Below are positions 27,523 through 46,892 of a stretch of 64,000 nucleotides of DNA, in pieces; position 1 is the first letter of the stretch, and every line of letters starts with the position of its first letter. Source of the DNA: Aquirufa ecclesiirivi (lineage in GTDB: Bacteria > Bacteroidota > Bacteroidia > Cytophagales > Spirosomataceae); the NCBI RefSeq assembly GCF_011250515.1, contig NZ_JAANOP010000005.1, forward strand, positions 188,877 to 252,876, read 5' to 3'. The notes beneath the pieces were generated by a model that saw only the letters and a program-made list of their open reading frames with translations, was not told where the DNA came from and ran no database searches. Both the position numbers and the translations under genes were made by a program.

Positions 27523-27628
27523 TTTTGAAAAGTTTAACAACAGGTAAAGGAGTCAAATCCTGTCTGATTTAACATGCTAACCCTTACATCGATGATTTTT
27601 TTGAGTTTTCAGCGCTAAAAACTCGACA

Positions 27629-27701
27629 AAATCCCTTCGTCGGTACTAACCGAATCAGGTTCAATGGGTATAATCTCAGCCCAAATATTTGGGCACCCCT
27701 T
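27629..27701 (-). ncRNA. TPP (THI element) riboswitch
   Basis: Read on the minus strand the region has all the conserved blocks of a TPP riboswitch in order: GGGGTGCC (27692-27699), CTGAGA (27674-27679), ACCC, GAACCTGAT (27654-27662), GTACCGACGAAGGGAT (27631-27646). It lies 107 bases before the TonB receptor start. An expression platform is not obvious: a hairpin at 27603-27624 has no T-run, so control may act on translation. TPP binding should lower receptor synthesis. Confidence 0.95.
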
Positions 27702-27713
27702 TTTGTGGATACA

Positions 27714-39925: not shown

Positions 39926-40705
39926 TTATTTAAGGCCTTTTATCCCGCGAACAAAAGCTACAATATCATCTTGTAAATGACTCGACTTACCTAACAACTT
40001 CACAAATGCACTACCAATAATAGCACCAGAAGCGGAAGCCGAAGCTTTCAAAAAGCTTTCACGATCTGATATTCCAAAGCCAATCAATCTTGGATTTTTC
40101 AAATTCATTTCATTGATTCTTTCAAAATACACTTCTTGATCTGAACTAATCCCAGTTTTAGCACCAGTGGTACTAGCCGAGGAAACCATATAAATAAAGC
40201 CTTGACTCACCGAATCAATTCGACGAATGCGCTCATCAGTGGTTTGAGGTGTAATCAAAAAGATATTAAATAACCCATATCGCTCAAAAATCGCTTGATA
40301 TTCCGTCTCATATTCTGCCATGGGCAAATCCGGCAAAATCAAGCCATCAATACCTATTTCTTGGCATTTTTGACAAAATTTTTCTACGCCAAACTGTAAA
40401 ACAGGGTTGATATATCCCATCAACAATACAGGAACCTGAACTTTGGATCTCATATCTTTCAATTGCTCAAACAACAAAGCCACGGTCATTCCTTGATCTA
40501 AGGATACCTGGTTCGACTGCTGAATGGTTTCTCCGTCTGCCACAGGATCAGAATAAGGCATTCCAATCTCTATAATATCGACGCCTCCTTCCTGAAGAGC
40601 CTCCAATACCGTCATCGTATCACCCAATTGGGGATAACCTGCCGTAGCATATACATTTAATATAGGGCCTTTCGCCGATTCAAAAACTGCTGAAATTCGA
40701 TTCAT
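39926..40705 (-). CDS. trpA: Tryptophan synthase alpha chain
   Basis: 259 residues. Catalytic E46 and D57 lie in DIIEIGMPYSDPVADG. It cleaves indole-3-glycerol phosphate to indole, which passes through the tunnel to TrpB. Start abuts the trpB stop (no gap), the last gene of trpEGDCFBA. Confidence 0.97.
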   Translation of the reverse strand: MNRISAVFESAKGPILNVYATAGYPQLGDTMTVLEALQEGGVDIIEIGMPYSDPVADGETIQQSNQVSLDQGMTVALLFEQLKDMRSKVQVPVLLMGYINPVLQFGVEKFCQKCQEIGIDGLILPDLPMAEYETEYQAIFERYGLFNIFLITPQTTDERIRRIDSVSQGFIYMVSSASTTGAKTGISSDQEVYFERINEMNLKNPRLIGFGISDRESFLKASASASGAIIGSAFVKLLGKSSHLQDDIVAFVRGIKGLK

Positions 40706-41896
40706 CTAAACTAAATTTAATCTTTGTTGGTAAGTCGCCAAATCCTTATCCCCTCTTCCTGACAAATTAATAACCACTATTTCAGTAGGTTTGGCTTGTA
40801 ATTTAGGTAATACCGCTAAGGCATGGGCTGACTCTAAGGCGGGAATAATTCCTTCCAATTGACTTAACTCCAAAGCCGACACCAAAGCTTCCTCATCTGT
40901 AATATCGTAAAAATGAGCGCGCCCTGTCTTAAATAGATGAGCGTGCATTGGGCCAATTCCCGGGTAATCCAATCCTGCTGAAATAGAATAAGGTTCGATC
41001 ACTTGTCCATCTTCTGTTTGCATTAATAAACTCTTACTGCCATGCAAAACGCCAGCCTTACCTAAAAAAGTAGTCGCTGCCGAATGTCCCGTATTTATCC
41101 CCTGACCGGCAGCCTCCGCCGCCACCAATTGAGTTCTTTCCTCATCTAAATAATGATAAAAAGCTCCCGCTGCATTAGAGCCTCCTCCCACACATGCCAA
41201 CACATAGTCGGGATAATTTCTCCCAACTTTTTCCATCAATTGAGCCTTTATTTCCTCCGATATTACAGATTGAAATCTGGCTACCATATCTGGATAAGGA
41301 TGTGGCCCCACTACAGAACCAATGATGTAATGCGTATCAACTGGATGATTAATCCAATGGCGCATCGCTTCATTTGTGGCATCTTTCAAGGTCTTAGATC
41401 CGGACTCTGCTGCGACAACCTGCGCACCTAACATCCTCATCCTAGCCACATTAGGCGCCTGCCGCTCTATGTCGATAGCCCCCATGTAAACAATACACTC
41501 TAAGCCCATCAAGGCACAAACCGTGGCAGTAGCAACACCATGCTGACCCGCTCCTGTTTCTGCTACAATCTTATTTTTACCTAATTTCTTAGCTACTAAA
41601 ATCTGCCCAATGGTATTGTTGACCTTATGAGCGCCAGTATGACAAAGATCTTCCCTTTTTAAATATATCTGAGTTTGGTATTTCTCTGATAATCTTTTTG
41701 CCTCAAACAAGGGTGTAGGTCTTCCTACGAAATCCTTCAATAAAGCATGAAATTCTTGTTGAAAAGTCGGATCATGTATAATTTCAAGGTAATGTGTTCT
41801 AAGTTCTTCCACATTAGGATAAAGCATCTCGGGAATAAATGCCCCGCCAAATTCCCCATAATACCCTTTGTCGTTTACTTGATAAGTAAGTGCCAT
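40706..41896 (-). CDS. trpB: Tryptophan synthase beta chain
   Basis: 396 residues, TrpB1 type. PLP lysine K91 in [22 protein letters not shown] binds the PLP phosphate. It joins indole and serine to give tryptophan. It sits four bases after trpF and directly before trpA. Confidence 0.97.
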
Positions 41897-41900
41897 AACG

Positions 41901-42518
41901 CTAATTTTCTGCTAATATTTCCGAAATTTCTCGTACTTCTTGTACATTTTTCAATCCAGCCTTGATCTCCACTTTACTGTTAAAATCAAGTGCATGAATG
42001 GGATATCTTTTACTCAAATCCATTGCTTCCTTTGCATTCTCCTTACTTAAACCGCCTGCTAAAAGAAAAGGTTTTCCAGCTGCATATGAGGCTAATATAT
42101 CCCAATCAAATCGTTGTCCTGTTCCACCTGTTTGCTTTCCTTGTTTGGTATCAAATAAATAAAAATCAGGCGCTTCACTCAAGCCTTCCACATCCTGTTT
42201 ATCTGCCACCGATATGGCCTTTATTACAGTTAAACCCGCATTTTTTAATGCCAAAATCTCATCTTCTTTTTCCTCCCCATGTAGCTGAACCCAAGTAAAT
42301 CCTGCCCTTTGAGATAATTCAATAATACTGGAAACAGCTCGATTCACAAATACCCCAACTGGAATTGTTTTACCTAAAACTTCCTTGGGAATCACAAAAT
42401 CTTCTCCTACGTATCGAGGTGAAGCTTCTGCCCAAATAAATCCCATGTATTCTGGATTCGCTTTGGCCACTTCTTGGATATTATCCATTTCTCGCATGCC
42501 GCAAATCTTCCATTTCAT
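41901..42518 (-). CDS. trpF: Phosphoribosylanthranilate isomerase
   Basis: 205 residues, a single TIM barrel. KICGMRE at the N-terminus holds the catalytic Cys; a later Asp in the [19 protein letters not shown] stretch fits the acid. It converts phosphoribosyl-anthranilate to CdRP. TrpF and TrpC are separate genes here, not fused. The start lies one base from the trpC stop. Confidence 0.96.
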
Positions 42519-42519
42519 C

Positions 42520-43308
42520 TTATCCTTGATTTAAAAAATCCAATAAGGCCTTTCCTGGAGCATCTGTTTTCATGAAACTTTCTCCAATCAAAAAACCTTT
42601 ATATCCATATCCGCGCAATTGTTGAATGATGCTGTGTCCCGAAATACAACTTTCAGATACCTTTATACAAGTCGCTGGAATTTTTTCTGCCAAACGCATG
42701 GACGCCTCTACATTCTGCTCCGCGAAATTCTTCAAATTACGATTATTCACTCCGACCACAGAAATATAATCCCCCAAGCTACGATTCAACTCCTCCTCAT
42801 CATGCACCTCTAACAACGTTTCCATGCCTAAGGATCGAGCCAATGTTCCTAATTGCTTAATTTCCTGAGGGCTCAATGCCGCGGCTATCAACAAAATCAC
42901 ATCCGCTCCCATCGCCTTTGCCTCCACAATTTGGTATTCATCAACCATGAAATCTTTACGCAATATGGGTGTATGGGGATTAGCCCGACGAGCCTCTTCG
43001 AAATCTTGGTCCGTTCCACCAAAAAATGGGGTATCGGTTAAAACAGATAAACAAGCAGCACCAGCAGCAGCATAGGCTTGGGTCACTTCTTCTACGGTTA
43101 AACGATCATTGATCACTCCCTTGGAAGGCGATTTACGCTTAAATTCAGCAATAATTCCCGTGGAAGCAGGCTGCGTTAATGACATCGATAAGGAATGACA
43201 ATTACGCGCAAAAAATCCCGTTTTCTCCAATGCATTCATGGAAATGTGTGACTTCCTTTCCGCAACTTCCTTCCTTTTGGAATCTAAAATTGTAGCTAAA
43301 ATACTCAT
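42520..43308 (-). CDS. trpC: Indole-3-glycerol phosphate synthase
   Basis: 262 residues. IIAEFKRKSPSKG (about 53-65) with the substrate-binding lysines, LLEVHDEEEL near 163 and VVGVNNRNLKNF near 180 are characteristic. It closes the indole ring from CdRP. One-base spacings to trpD and trpF indicate tight coupling. Confidence 0.97.
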   Translation of the reverse strand: MSILATILDSKRKEVAERKSHISMNALEKTGFFARNCHSLSMSLTQPASTGIIAEFKRKSPSKGVINDRLTVEEVTQAYAAAGAACLSVLTDTPFFGGTDQDFEEARRANPHTPILRKDFMVDEYQIVEAKAMGADVILLIAAALSPQEIKQLGTLARSLGMETLLEVHDEEELNRSLGDYISVVGVNNRNLKNFAEQNVEASMRLAEKIPATCIKVSESCISGHSIIQQLRGYGYKGFLIGESFMKTDAPGKALLDFLNQG

Positions 43309-43309
43309 C

Positions 43310-44299
43310 CTAATCCATGATAAATTTCTTGAAAACTTGAAATGCTCTACCGCTTTCCAAAGACTCTTTGGCCATCAAATACCCATCTGACAAATTACTT
43401 ACCTTTTCCGCCACGAGCAAAGCTGCTCCTGCATTGGCCAAAACCACTTGGGTTTGAGCAGGTGTACCTTGTCTTTGTAATATCTTATATAACATATCGG
43501 CCGACTGCTCTACATTAATTCCTCCACTTAAATCTTGAGATTGAACGGTTTCACATCCAAAATCACTTGGTAAATATCGTTTTTCTCCTTCCTTCGTCGT
43601 CAATAAAAATGAACTCGTTAAAGAGATTTCATCATATCCATCTTCTCCAAAAACGATTCCAAATTGCTTAGGTCCAGAAGCATAAAATTGCACAAACAAA
43701 TCGTATACTTCTTTGGCATAAACCCCGGTTAATTGCTTCGTAACTAAAGCAGGGTTCATCAAAGGCCCCAACAGATTGAAAAACGTTTTCACTCCCAATT
43801 CCTTACGAATCGGTCCAACATGGCGCATCGCAGGATGAAACAATGGCGCATGTAAAAAACAAATTCCCGATGAATCCATTTTACGTTTTAAATAGCTGGG
43901 ATCATTACTGAACTTAACCCCTAAAAATTCCAATACGGTAGAAGAACCAACAGCCGATGAAACTCCGTGATTACCATGTTTGGCAATCTTTTGTCCTGCG
44001 CCCACCACAACAAAAGAGGAAGTGGTACTGACATTGAAAGTATCTTTTCCATCGCCACCCGTTCCACAGACATCCATGGCATCAAATTCAGTTAAGTCGA
44101 TGGTCACCGCCAATTCCATCATGGCAGAGACAAAGCCCTTTAATTCTTGAACTTGAATGGGGGTATACCAATAACTCGCTAAAAATGCAGCTATTTGACT
44201 CGGATTAATTCCTCCTTGACCTACACGTAACAATACGTCTTTAGCTTCTACCTCTGTTAAGGAATATCCTTGAACTCGCTTACTTAATATATTTTTCAT
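43310..44299 (-). CDS. trpD: Anthranilate phosphoribosyltransferase
   Basis: 329 residues. The PRPP-binding CGTGGDGKDTFNVST (about 79-93) and the KHGNHGVSSAVGS motif (about 109-121) are intact. It adds phosphoribose to anthranilate. Three bases separate it from trpG. The TrpG and TrpD parts are not fused. Confidence 0.97.
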   Translation of the reverse strand: MKNILSKRVQGYSLTEVEAKDVLLRVGQGGINPSQIAAFLASYWYTPIQVQELKGFVSAMMELAVTIDLTEFDAMDVCGTGGDGKDTFNVSTTSSFVVVGAGQKIAKHGNHGVSSAVGSSTVLEFLGVKFSNDPSYLKRKMDSSGICFLHAPLFHPAMRHVGPIRKELGVKTFFNLLGPLMNPALVTKQLTGVYAKEVYDLFVQFYASGPKQFGIVFGEDGYDEISLTSSFLLTTKEGEKRYLPSDFGCETVQSQDLSGGINVEQSADMLYKILQRQGTPAQTQVVLANAGAALLVAEKVSNLSDGYLMAKESLESGRAFQVFKKFIMD

Positions 44300-44302
44300 G
44301 TT

Positions 44303-44866
44303 TTATTGAATCCAATTTTTAATCATTTGCAATCCATGTTGCGTTAAATACGCTTCTGGATGAAATTGTACACCACGTACATCATATTTCTGATGAGCTT
44401 CTGCCATCACATATCCTTGATCATCCACTGCCGTAATTTTCAAATCGGAAGGCATCGTTTCTGGAATGACCGTCCATGAATGGTAGCGGCAAACTTCGAA
44501 TCGAGAAGGAATACCTTGAAATAATCTTTCTGTAGGATCTGTCACGACACACTCGGTAGTAACTCCGTGCAAAACCTCACCCATATTTTGCAATTTCGAA
44601 CCAAAAGATTCCGCTATGGCTTGATGTCCTAAACAAACACCTAAAATCCGTTTTGTCGATGCATATTCCTTCAACAAATCTAGCATAATCCCTGCTTCTG
44701 AAGGAATCCCAGGACCTGGTGATAATAAGATATGGTCATATGCCTTCACTTCTTCTAAGGCTATTTTATCATTTCTAAATACATCTACCTCTGCTCCAAT
44801 CTCTTTCAATAGGTATACCAAATTGTATACAAATGAATCATAATTATCTATTACTAGTACTTTCAT
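44303..44866 (-). CDS. trpG: Anthranilate synthase glutamine amidotransferase component
   Basis: 187 residues, class I amidotransferase. Catalytic C78 (GVCLGHQA), H169 and E171 (QFHPEAYL). It supplies ammonia to TrpE. It lies six bases after trpE. Such enzymes can also serve folate synthesis (PabA), but the operon decides for trpG. Confidence 0.95.
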   Translation of the reverse strand: MKVLVIDNYDSFVYNLVYLLKEIGAEVDVFRNDKIALEEVKAYDHILLSPGPGIPSEAGIMLDLLKEYASTKRILGVCLGHQAIAESFGSKLQNMGEVLHGVTTECVVTDPTERLFQGIPSRFEVCRYHSWTVIPETMPSDLKITAVDDQGYVMAEAHQKYDVRGVQFHPEAYLTQHGLQMIKNWIQ

Positions 44867-44872
44867 GGCTTC

Positions 44873-46294
44873 TTATGCTAAATTTTCAGCTACATCCAAG
44901 GCCTTTTTCAGGGCAGCTAATTTGTTATGTATCTCTTGCATTTCACTGGCTACTATGGACTTAGCCACGACACCCATTCCTGCTTGATAAAATAAGGTAT
45001 TCCCTTTACTCAAAAAGGTACGAATAGCGATGGCATGATTAAAATTGCCTTCAAAATCCATAAAACCAATGGCTCCTCCGTAAATATGGCGGTTCGTCGG
45101 TTCCAAACGATTGATAATCGTCATGGCATTGTGCTTAGGTGCCCCGCTTAAAGTCCCTGCTGGAAACGTATCTGCTACCATTTGCAAGGGATTAACTCCC
45201 TTTTGTAAAGTACCTGTCACCTTCGACACTAAATGTATCACATGAGAAAAAAACTGCACTTCCTTAAAGGTCTCTACCTTCACATTATCAGCACTCCTAC
45301 TTAAATCATTTCTGGCCAAATCCACCAACATCACATGTTCTGCTGATTCTTTAGGATCAGCAATCAATGCTTGAGCTAATTCTGCGTCTCGTGCATCATC
45401 TCCCGTCCGACGAAATGTTCCAGCAATCGGGTGAATTTCTGCCAAATCATGATCTATTTTGATTTGTTTTTCTGGCGAAGCACCAAAAATGCGGTATTGT
45501 TCATAATCAAAAAAGAATAAATAGGGAGATGGGTTAACTGAGCGTAAGGCCCGATAAACCTGAAAGTCATCCCCTGAAAAATTTTGACTGAACCTTCTGG
45601 ATGGAACAATTTGAAATACATCCCCACGCAAGCAATGCTTAATGCAAGTCTTTACAATCTCTTCGGTTTGAGCTTCGGTAAGATTACTTTGTTCATCACC
45701 TACTCGCTTAAATGCCTCCAAGGTATAATGCGGCATGTCTAAATGATAAGCCACCGCATCTAAGTTAGGGGTTTCTCCTTCCAAATAACTGTGGGCATAC
45801 CAAGTCATCTGGTTATTGAAATGATTCAATGCTACCACATATCGATACACATTATATCGAATGGAAGGTATGGCTGTCTCTGGGTTTTTATCTTGTATTT
45901 GAATATCTTCAAAATACGTGACGGCATCATAACTGATGTGACCAAAAAGGCCATTGGCCATGGGAGAATCACCTACTTCCTTTTGATACGCAAAACGTGA
46001 AGAAAAATCTTGTAATACCTTCACGGCATCTTTGGAATTTTCCAACTGGAAAGTTTCTACTGTTCCGTCGGGGAAAGTCTGAGTGACAAGCTGTTGATCC
46101 AAAACAAAACTAGCTACAGGATCAAAAGCGATATGAGAAAAACCATGTTCACGACCGTGATAATCAGCACTTTCTAAAATAACAGAATTTTTATAGTGTT
46201 TTCTGATTTTCAAGAAAATACCTATGGGCGTTAACGTATCTGCTAACAAGGTCTTCCTAGTGGTATGGATGGTAAATTTATTTGAACTGGACAT
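44873..46294 (-). CDS. trpE: Anthranilate synthase component I
   Basis: 473 residues from ATG at 46294. An in-frame start at 46375 is rejected: it would begin upstream of the attenuator hairpin and code through its stem. The chorismate-binding catalytic half (about 200-465) is complete with the ASPEKQIKI, PIAGTFRRTGDDA and GGAIGFMDFEGN segments. The N-terminal feedback region reads LLADTLTPIGIF, where the usual LLES is LLAD. It uses chorismate and ammonia. First gene of the operon, preceded by the leader peptide and attenuator. Confidence 0.95.
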   Translation of the reverse strand: MSSSNKFTIHTTRKTLLADTLTPIGIFLKIRKHYKNSVILESADYHGREHGFSHIAFDPVASFVLDQQLVTQTFPDGTVETFQLENSKDAVKVLQDFSSRFAYQKEVGDSPMANGLFGHISYDAVTYFEDIQIQDKNPETAIPSIRYNVYRYVVALNHFNNQMTWYAHSYLEGETPNLDAVAYHLDMPHYTLEAFKRVGDEQSNLTEAQTEEIVKTCIKHCLRGDVFQIVPSRRFSQNFSGDDFQVYRALRSVNPSPYLFFFDYEQYRIFGASPEKQIKIDHDLAEIHPIAGTFRRTGDDARDAELAQALIADPKESAEHVMLVDLARNDLSRSADNVKVETFKEVQFFSHVIHLVSKVTGTLQKGVNPLQMVADTFPAGTLSGAPKHNAMTIINRLEPTNRHIYGGAIGFMDFEGNFNHAIAIRTFLSKGNTLFYQAGMGVVAKSIVASEMQEIHNKLAALKKALDVAENLA

Positions 46295-46311
46295 GAGGCT
46301 ATCGGCAAAAT

Positions 46312-46346
46312 TAAAATAAAAAGGCTTACTGGGAACAGCAAGCCTT
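46312..46346 (-). terminator. trp operon attenuator terminator
   Basis: On the minus strand AAGGCTTGCT (46346-46337), loop GTTCCC, AGTAAGCCTT (46330-46321), then TTTATTTT. The stem contains one G-U pair. It ends about 18 bases before the trpE ATG. CTGTTC at its loop can pair with GAACAG upstream (antiterminator). Confidence 0.85.
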
Positions 46347-46392
46347 GAGTAAAACATATCATGTACACACAGCAAAACTGTTCAAAGGAATT

Positions 46393-46434
46393 TTAGCCTT
46401 GCCACCAGTTTTTGTTGTATGTTGTTTTAGTCAT
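46393..46434 (-). CDS. trpL: trp leader peptide with tandem Trp codons
   Basis: ATG at 46434 opens a 13-residue frame MTKTTYNKNWWQG, stop TAA at 46393-46395. Residues 10 and 11 are both Trp, rare side by side in a short peptide, and it lies 46 bases before the attenuator hairpin. Stalling at the TGG pair under tryptophan shortage should free the downstream segment CCTTTGAACAG to form the antiterminator. Ribosome-mediated attenuation is the established mechanism for such leaders. Chance occurrence is unlikely. Confidence 0.9.
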   Translation of the reverse strand: MTKTTYNKNWWQG

Positions 46435-46452
46435 TTCTATAATAATTTGATG

Positions 46453-46482
46453 CAAATGTAATCTGAAATATGGTAAATCAAA
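46453..46482 (-). promoter_or_regulatory. Promoter of the trp operon
   Basis: On the minus strand TTTG (46479-46482), 18 bases, then TACATTTG (46453-46460). It lies 19 bases before the leader peptide ATG, so the message would start a few bases upstream of trpL. Confidence 0.7.
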
Positions 46483-46499: not shown

Positions 46500-46892
46500 C
46501 TAGGCTTTCCTTTCTACTAAATCCCACAAATTGCCATATAAATCGGCAAATACCGCCACTTTTCCATATTCCTCAATACTAGCCTCCCGAATTATCTGAA
46601 CTTCATGTTGTAATAAATTTTGATAATCTCGATCAAAATTATCTGTATGTAAAAACAAGAAAACTCGTCCGCCGGTTTGATTCCCTATACAGATTTTTTG
46701 TTCTTCATTTGCTGCTTTAGCTAATAACAATTGACAGGAACCTTCCCCCACAGGTTTTACAATTACCCAGCGTTTCGAAGGACTCATGATGGTGTCCTCC
46801 ACTAAATCAAAACCGAGCTTTCGCGTATAAAATGCAATGGCTTCATCATAATCATCTACTACCAACGAAATTTGTGCAATCCTTTGATTCAT
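46500..46892 (-). CDS. VOC family (glyoxalase-like) protein
   Basis: 130 residues with two beta-alpha-beta-beta-beta motifs, IAQISLVVDDYDEAIAFYTRKLGFDLVED and FADLYGNLWDLVE. Metal ligands of the VOC family would be few; the function may be lactoylglutathione-like, dioxygenase-like or resistance, undecided. Four bases after purB, so co-transcribed. The trp promoter begins just after its stop. Confidence 0.88.
   Translation of the reverse strand: MNQRIAQISLVVDDYDEAIAFYTRKLGFDLVEDTIMSPSKRWVIVKPVGEGSCQLLLAKAANEEQKICIGNQTGGRVFLFLHTDNFDRDYQNLLQHEVQIIREASIEEYGKVAVFADLYGNLWDLVERKA

What the first reader, a model, noticed from the sequence alone, without database searches (positions are those of the whole stretch)
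46312..46482. Complete ribosome-mediated attenuator in front of trpEGDCFBA
Promoter, 13-codon leader peptide with adjacent Trp codons, a stop, a mutually exclusive pairing (CTGTTC with GAACAG, and CAAGG with CCTTTG) and a T-tailed hairpin stand in order within 171 bases. The leader frame sits just 19 bases after the promoter -7 element, so the 5' leader is nearly leaderless. This is classical in Proteobacteria but far less studied in Bacteroidota.
Basis: partly seen in the sequence, partly recalled or inferred. Interest (0 to 1): 0.75.

Follow-up and report, generated by a model that had tools for sequence, protein, structure and literature searches.

The report
Tryptophan operon attenuator in Aquirufa
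A freshwater bacterium carries, just before its tryptophan-making genes, a tiny gene with two tryptophan codons and an RNA switch that should stop transcription when tryptophan is plentiful; the switch is conserved in relatives and belongs to a kind already described.

Summary
On the minus strand before trpEGDCFBA of an Aquirufa genome stand a TAnnTTTG box, a 13-codon leader MTKTTYNKNWWQG, an antiterminator strand GAACAGT, its partner GCTGTTC and a T-tailed terminator. A leader with Trp codons precedes trpE in 105 of 105 distinct upstream regions of a first set (94 with WW or WxW, 11 with one Trp; shuffles 31 of 2100) and in 68 of 80 of a second. The antiterminator pairing changes on both sides between genera; at most 1 of 20,000 partner permutations did as well. 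Its 5' strand starts about 15-18 nt after the last Trp codon in the first set, while the stop codon's place varies, as expected if a ribosome stalled at Trp decides.

It is not a new kind. Rfam RF01692 (Bacteroid-trp) describes this element; the window scores 21.9 bits against a cut-off of 49, family relatives at the same place up to 52.3. Side findings: an Aquirufa clade with one Trp codon, tandem trp attenuators in two genomes, probably leaderless trp leaders elsewhere. Response to tryptophan is untested.

The parts
46479..46482 (-). TTTG, possible -33 element of a Bacteroidota sigma-A promoter (name recalled)
   Evidence: sequence; 18 nt before the -7 box; not tested further
46453..46460 (-). 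TACATTTG, -7 box (TAnnTTTG)
   Evidence: TACATTTG in 29 of the 30 rows of alignment A1, TATATTCG in Sandaracinomonas L079; TAnnTTTG within 60 nt of the leader ATG in 84 of 100 loci against 4% of mononucleotide shuffles
46393..46434 (-). leader peptide ORF MTKTTYNKNWWQG, stop TAA 46395-46393
   Evidence: leader with Trp codons in 105 of 105 distinct upstream regions of the first set
46402..46407 (-). tandem Trp codons TGG TGG (codons 10 and 11), the control codons
   Evidence: 19 of the 30 rows of A1 keep both, 11 (one clade) keep the second only
46365..46422 (-). 1:2 hairpin (anti-antiterminator): ACATACA, CAAAA, CTG, CAAGG of the leader with CCTTTG, CAG, TTTTG, TGTGTGT
   Evidence: fold; 94.8% of cells paired in 30 sequences against 26-51% when slid, 2 pairs changed on both sides; partner permutation 0 of 20000 at each of three thresholds
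46377..46383 (-). antiterminator 5' strand GAACAGT (region 2), starting 18 nt after the last Trp codon
46333..46339 (-). antiterminator 3' strand GCTGTTC (region 3), lying in the upper stem and loop of the terminator
   Evidence: covariation between genera
46311..46346 (-). intrinsic terminator (3:4): AAGGCTTGCTG TTCC CAGTAAGCCTT, then TTTATTTTAA
   Evidence: 99.7% of cells paired in 30 sequences; a terminator found automatically in 100 of 105 distinct loci
44873..46294 (-). trpE, first structural gene
   Evidence: NCBIfam TIGR00564, E 2.3e-120, below that model's curated cut-off
39926..44866 (-). trpG, trpD, trpC, trpF, trpB, trpA, following trpE on the same strand
   Evidence: trpG, D, C, B and A each pass the cut-off of at least one matching model; trpF matches phosphoribosylanthranilate isomerase models only below their cut-offs

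Best explanation
This is a ribosome-mediated transcription attenuator that senses charged tRNA-Trp, the Aquirufa form of the Bacteroidota trp leader (Rfam RF01692). Transcription starts about 14 nt before the leader ORF (inferred). A ribosome begins the 13-codon leader while RNA polymerase moves on. If Trp-tRNA is scarce, the ribosome stalls at codons 10 and 11 and covers the 5' half of the 1:2 hairpin. GAACAGT, 18 nt beyond the last Trp codon, is then free and pairs with GCTGTTC as that emerges. This takes the upper stem and loop of the terminator, and transcription continues into trpEGDCFBA. If Trp-tRNA is plentiful, the ribosome runs on to the stop codon 9 nt before GAACAGT, or leaves and lets 1:2 form; the terminator closes and transcription ends near 46315. 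Shown here by sequence comparison: leader, Trp codons, the three alternative pairings, terminator and spacing. Inferred: the transcription start, coupling, response to Trp and the size of the effect.
For: Trp leader before trpE in 105 of 105 distinct upstream regions (94 WW or WxW, 11 single Trp) against, for WW or WxW, 2 of 105 on the reverse strand and 31 of 2100 shuffles; second set 68 of 80 (class 5 of 5, family 38 of 40, other classes of the phylum 25 of 35), reverse strand 1 of 80. Terminator found automatically in 100 of 105 and in 62 of 68. Antiterminator pairing: 1, 0 and 0 of 20000 permutations of partners as good as the native set at three clustering thresholds; native mean -10.3 and -9.9 kcal/mol against -4.6 and -4.5 for composition-keeping shuffles. 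Start of its 5' strand: median 17 nt after the last Trp codon in 98 loci; among dereplicated loci median deviation 1.5-2 against about 12 in shuffles; second set median 15, deviation 2 against 13, and 2.5 against 13.6 after dropping seven regions that share stretches with the first set. With a ribosome stalled at Trp and polymerase just past the loop, the predicted fold holds GAACAGT/GCTGTTC; the E. coli trpL control behaves alike. RF01692 matches over positions 1-131, with Trp codons and AAGGCUUG aligned; in the family 26 of 31 places matched by RF01692 lie just before trpE.
Against: The window's RF01692 score is far below the cut-off (21.9 against 49); none of the 8 genomes of the genus matched at E up to 1; and another stretch of the same genome, inside a 200-codon ORF, scores higher (24.9). 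The native partner is the single best of all partners in only 4 of 15, 8 of 24 and 6 of 34 clusters, and a looser clustering gave 733 of 20000. The Aquirufa antiterminator is short (7 pairs). Once the terminator is fully transcribed it is part of the minimum-energy structure in each of the four ribosome states tried, so the switch must be kinetic; the three states tried for E. coli show the same. With the ribosome at the stop codon a shortened 2:3 helix still forms in the intermediate (-10.0 against -13.8). Within Aquirufa, 2:3 and 3:4 hardly vary, so covariation comes from other genera. Outside the family the spacing is looser: 8 of 22 dereplicated loci at 13-20 nt, a number also reached in at least one of 100 shuffle sets. 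Twelve of 80 regions have no WW or WxW leader. No expression data.
Confidence: 0.93

Rival explanations
1. The leader peptide is an arrest peptide that senses free tryptophan (as TnaC does, recalled), rather than a sensor of charged tRNA.
For: Within the 30 aligned close relatives the peptide end is well kept (mostly NKNWWQG or NKNGWQG).
Against: Between genera the Trp run is kept while the rest of the peptide and its length change, from MIWWWHSSQKG to MRFEAISSNLWWRSSSIEVEQSAHAL. The genes controlled are biosynthetic, so stalling should switch them on at low Trp.
Confidence: 0.04
2. The hairpin is only the terminator of the upstream gene (46500-46892, weak similarity to glyoxalase-like families) and the Trp ORF is chance.
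For: The hairpin lies between two genes on the same strand; tandem-Trp short ORFs occur at 7 places in the window.
Against: Trp leader, terminator and a pairing between them are found together before trpE in 98 loci of the first set and 61 of the second. A TAnnTTTG box stands between the upstream gene and the leader here, and within 60 nt of the leader in 84 of 100 loci.
Confidence: 0.01
3. Another RNA switch: a T-box, a TRAP site or a ribosomal-protein L10 leader.
For: The best Rfam E-value in the permissive search is L10_leader, 27.8 bits, E 0.01.
Against: That score is below its cut-off of 44 and covers A-rich single-stranded sequence plus the terminator; the gene is trpE, not rplJ. Only a TPP riboswitch and a tRNA, both elsewhere, reached a cut-off in the window. 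The leader from 46448 to 46321 holds one TAG and no GAG, so no run of TRAP repeats (repeat motif recalled).
Confidence: 0.01

Closest known systems
Bacteroid-trp leader RNA, Rfam RF01692 (Weinberg et al. 2010, PMC2864571; only the Table 1 entry and search passages seen)
   Same: Phylum, gene (trpE), leader AUG, Trp codons at the start of a hairpin, ending in AAGGCUUG of the terminator; six genomes of the same family pass the cut-off just before trpE.
   Different: Aquirufa scores below the cut-off; two Trp codons and a 13-codon peptide; the Rfam model ends inside the terminator 5' arm and so does not hold the full 2:3 and 3:4 helices.
Escherichia coli trpL attenuator (L172, NC_000913.3)
   Same: Leader peptide of 14 codons with tandem Trp codons and a terminator before trpE; antiterminator in the stalled intermediate, terminator in the finished RNA.
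   Different: No Shine-Dalgarno-like sequence is evident by eye before the Aquirufa leader; the promoter box is TAnnTTTG; the antiterminator pairs with the loop and upper arm; no common ancestry of the element is claimed.
Leader-peptide attenuation in Flavobacterium psychrophilum (PMC9723704 and PMC6414381, passages)
   Same: Same phylum; one paper reports strong clues for leader-peptide attenuation before amino-acid operons, the other that Bacteroid-Trp is conserved before its trp operon.
   Different: A flavobacterium, not a cytophaga; the passages seen give no tryptophan-response experiment.

Membership tests
Bacteroid-trp RF01692 | score at or above the curated cut-off of 49 bits | tested here: not met
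   21.9 bits. Over the cut-off in 6 of 101 genomes of the family, in 0 of the 8 genomes of the genus; Sandaracinomonas, alignable with Aquirufa, 40.9 bits at the same place. Called a divergent homologue here, not a cut-off member.
Bacteroid-trp RF01692 | lies just before trp genes in Bacteroidota | tested here: met
Bacteroid-trp RF01692 | leader AUG, Trp codons and terminator 5' arm in register with the model | tested here: inconclusive
   aligned in register over positions 1-131, but at 21.9 bits, E 5, with many non-standard pairs; register is supported mainly through relatives
Ribosome-mediated trp attenuator (mechanistic class) | translated short ORF with control codons | tested here: met
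   ORF and Trp codons conserved; translation itself not shown
Ribosome-mediated trp attenuator (mechanistic class) | mutually exclusive antiterminator and terminator | tested here: met
Ribosome-mediated trp attenuator (mechanistic class) | anti-antiterminator (1:2) hairpin overlapping the control codons | tested here: met
Ribosome-mediated trp attenuator (mechanistic class) | termination changes with charged tRNA-Trp | not testable with these tools
   needs expression experiments
Trp_leader of Gammaproteobacteria (Rfam; name recalled) | match to the family | tested here: not met
   not among the matches

The most novel reading that the evidence does not exclude
In Bacteroidota trp attenuators the conserved quantity is the distance from the last Trp codon to the antiterminator strand, about one ribosome front edge (15-18 nt), while the stop codon floats: the strand starts anywhere from 31 nt before to 13 nt after it. 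The decision would then rest on stalling at Trp alone and not, as in the textbook picture, on a ribosome parked at the stop codon over region 2. Evolution tunes the gain by Trp codon number (three, two or one) and by adding a second attenuator in series.
Probability: 0.4. Interest if true: 0.5.

Novelty: new member of a known kind. Interest (0 to 1): 0.35.

Why it matters
The class was listed in 2010 as a candidate from comparative genomics (PMC2864571), and the listings and passages seen here (searches, several of them capped) showed no paper testing it. The comparison here supplies what a test needs: defined alternative pairings, their covariation, and a spacing rule. It also gives a natural series of three, two and one Trp codon, including one clade of Aquirufa that seems to have lost a codon once. 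Bacteroidota initiate mostly without Shine-Dalgarno pairing (recalled), so this is a tractable place to ask how coupling works there.

Tried and rejected
Pattern search of the own genome for TTTG-ATG-TGGTGG: 202 matches (73 with the pattern reversed), too loose to be of use. The second RF01692 place in the genome lies inside a 200-codon ORF and was dropped as chance. L10_leader and STnc340 matches below their cut-offs were rejected. Generality in this genome: in the 61 nt before hisG a hairpin but no run of His codons was seen by eye, and no leader ORF by eye before ilvD (sequences printed; the ORF lists start at 20 codons, and one search covers the wrong side of ilvD); not pursued. A first clustering at 60% likeness lumped 66 of 83 loci and left a weak test (733 of 20000); stricter clustering was then used, and this choice came after seeing the first result. 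The permutation test can be helped by differing G+C between genomes; the shuffle test keeps composition. The interval 13-20 nt was chosen, so for the first set it is not an independent test; for the second set it is.

Rows and misses. First set: 105 distinct regions of 149 recovered with trpE starts (120, 29; seven loci without a usable start dropped). Terminators were not found automatically in five (L086, L090, L150, L161, L152); hairpins are visible by eye (L086 and L090 rechecked), and those five are left out. L154 and L159 gave no helix of 5 pairs. Many rows of the first set are close relatives; the dereplicated numbers are those. Second set: 40 of 69 family genomes without loci, and 40 (5 of the same class, 35 of 98 of other classes), chosen by hand, mostly from different genera. 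It is not fully independent: L238 and L246 are nearly the same sequence as L101 and L104, and five more share short stretches; without all seven, 61 of 73 have a leader and the spacing is 15 nt, deviation 2.5 against 13.6. Twelve of 80 have no WW or WxW leader, six more no terminator found, one no helix. L182 and L192 give distances of 81 and 143 nt, probably wrong hairpins, and are kept in the counts. One search takes the end of the first Trp cluster, another the last Trp of the peptide. Only ATG starts and peptides of 8-45 codons were considered.

Full report
What is there. The finding lies on the minus strand before a complete trpEGDCFBA cluster. The genome is close to Aquirufa (Cytophagales): its TrpE is 98% identical to that of A. 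nivalisilvae. Reading 5' to 3': a possible TTTG at 46482; TACATTTG at 46460-46453, fitting the Bacteroidota -7 box TAnnTTTG; the leader ATG at 46434; MTKTTYNKNWWQG with TGG TGG at 46407-46402; TAA at 46395-46393; GAACAGT at 46383-46377; a hairpin at 46346-46321 followed by TTTATTTTAA; trpE ATG at 46294. In Flavobacterium psychrophilum the -7 box occupies -12 to -5 (PMC9723704, passages). By that rule transcription starts near 46448 and the 5' leader is about 14 nt, so 'nearly leaderless' overstates it.

Pairings. Three helices compete. 1:2 joins leader codons (ACATACA, CAAAA, CTG, CAAGG) to CCTTTG, CAG, TTTTG, TGTGTGT. 2:3 joins GAACAGT to GCTGTTC. 3:4 is the terminator. The 2:3 partner strand lies in the upper stem and loop of the terminator rather than along its whole 5' arm.

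Within the genus. In 30 distinct sequences (29 from the genus and Sandaracinomonas), 2:3 pairs in 100% of cells but varies only by two wobble changes. 3:4 pairs in 99.7% and shows no compensatory change. 1:2 pairs in 94.8% against 26-51% when slid, with two pairs changed on both sides. Eleven of the 30 end in NGWQG, that is, one Trp codon instead of two. They form one clade in a TrpE tree of 37 sequences (support 0.94), so one codon was probably lost once while the rest of the element stayed.

Beyond the genus. In the first set, 105 of 105 distinct upstream regions hold a leader: 94 with WW or WxW and the 11 single-Trp ones; the WW/WxW test finds 2 of 105 on the reverse strand and 31 of 2100 in shuffles. 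In a second set of 80 regions taken afterwards, leaders occur in 5 of 5 of the same class, 38 of 40 of the family and 25 of 35 from other classes of the phylum; reverse strand 1 of 80, shuffles about 2%. Seven of the 80 share stretches with the first set; without them 61 of 73 have a leader. The helix 2:3 changes on both sides between genera: GCTGAACGG/TCGTTCGGC, GCTAAACGA/TCGTTTGGC, GTCGTGA/TCACGAC, AGTGAACAAC/GTTGTTCACT, CGGGGTTCT/AGAACCCCG, and 12 pairs in Flectobacillus. With partners permuted among dereplicated loci, 1, 0 and 0 of 20000 permutations were as good at thresholds 0.7, 0.8 and 0.9; the native partner is the single best one in 4 of 15, 8 of 24 and 6 of 34. A looser clustering had given 733 of 20000. 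Against composition-keeping shuffles the native mean is -10.3 against -4.6 kcal/mol at threshold 0.8.

A spacing rule. The 5' strand of 2:3 begins a median of 17 nt after the last Trp codon (10th to 90th percentile 15-18, minimum 8, 98 loci). Among dereplicated loci the median deviation is 1.5-2 nt against about 12 in shuffles, and 18 of 22 or 28 of 32 lie at 13-20 nt against 3.3 or 5.1 expected. The second set agrees: median 15, deviation 2 against 13, 25 of 41 at 13-20 nt against 5.7; without the overlapping regions 22 of 38 against 5.3. The stop codon does not keep its place: relative to it the strand starts from -31 to +13, leaving out L112 (+21) and L182 and L192 (+45, +125), whose hairpins are doubtful. 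The rule is weaker outside the family (deviation 4.5; 8 of 22 loci at 13-20 nt). A ribosome stalled at the Trp codons should impose such a rule. It does not fit a strict need for a ribosome parked at the stop codon.

Folding. With the ribosome at the Trp codons and polymerase just past the loop, the predicted structure holds GAACAGT/GCTGTTC (-13.8); with the ribosome at the stop codon a shortened helix still forms (-10.0). Once the 3' arm is made, the terminator is in the minimum structure of each of the four states tried. The E. coli trpL leader gives the same picture in the states tried, so a kinetic switch is expected in both.

What it is called. RF01692, Bacteroid-trp, was published in 2010 (PMC2864571; Table 1 entry and passages seen). 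The window matches over all its positions with 21.9 bits, below the cut-off of 49. In the family, 30 of 101 genomes match at E up to 1 and 6 pass the cut-off; of the 31 places, 26 lie just before trpE and five elsewhere (compare). Sandaracinomonas scores 40.9 there; the 8 genomes of the genus gave no match in that search, which uses stricter filters. So the Aquirufa element is taken as a divergent homologue of a described family. Papers: one states that Bacteroid-Trp is conserved before the trp operon of F. psychrophilum (PMC6414381, passages), one reports clues for leader-peptide attenuation before amino-acid operons there (PMC9723704, passages), and one mentions short ORFs reminiscent of leader peptides in Bacteroides thetaiotaomicron (PMC7366714, passages). 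The listings showed no experiment on trp attenuation in this phylum; searches list only part of their hits (20 of 84, 20 of 35, 15 of 16), and most listed papers were seen as titles and abstract beginnings only.

Verdict. It is a new member of a known kind. The value lies in the comparative detail: covariation of the antiterminator, the spacing rule, the one-codon clade and the tandem attenuators.

Noticed in passing
L111 and L112, upstream of trpE (leaders at -275 to -221 in both; second leader -130 to -82 in L111, -149 or -131 to -71 in L112): Two Trp leaders, each with WWW and each followed by its own T-tailed hairpin (by eye), stand in series before trpE in two distinct Bacteroidota genomes: tandem trp attenuators.
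   Followed up: partly
L062, L065, L066, L068, L069, L070, L071, L075, L078, L088, L125: One Aquirufa clade has a single Trp codon in the leader (NGWQG); monophyletic in a TrpE tree, support 0.94.
   Followed up: yes
L050, L054, L112, L149, L157, L158, L162, L165, L166 and five others: The TAnnTTTG box ends so close to the leader ATG that the predicted 5' leader is 0-6 nt: probably leaderless trp leader peptides (14 of the 84 loci with a box).
   Followed up: partly
L157, L158 and L114: Trp codons are interrupted: WLW and WYW instead of WWW.
   Followed up: no
L214 and L215 (genomes G096 and G117, one genus), and ten other-class genomes: No WW or WxW leader found before trpE although relatives have one; loss, a moved promoter or a non-ATG start.
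   Followed up: no
window 27615-27710, minus strand: TPP riboswitch at 77.2 bits.
   Followed up: no
L169, just before hisG in the same genome: A hairpin with a T-rich tract in the 61-nt gap before hisG, without a run of His codons by eye; probably the terminator of the preceding gene.
   Followed up: no
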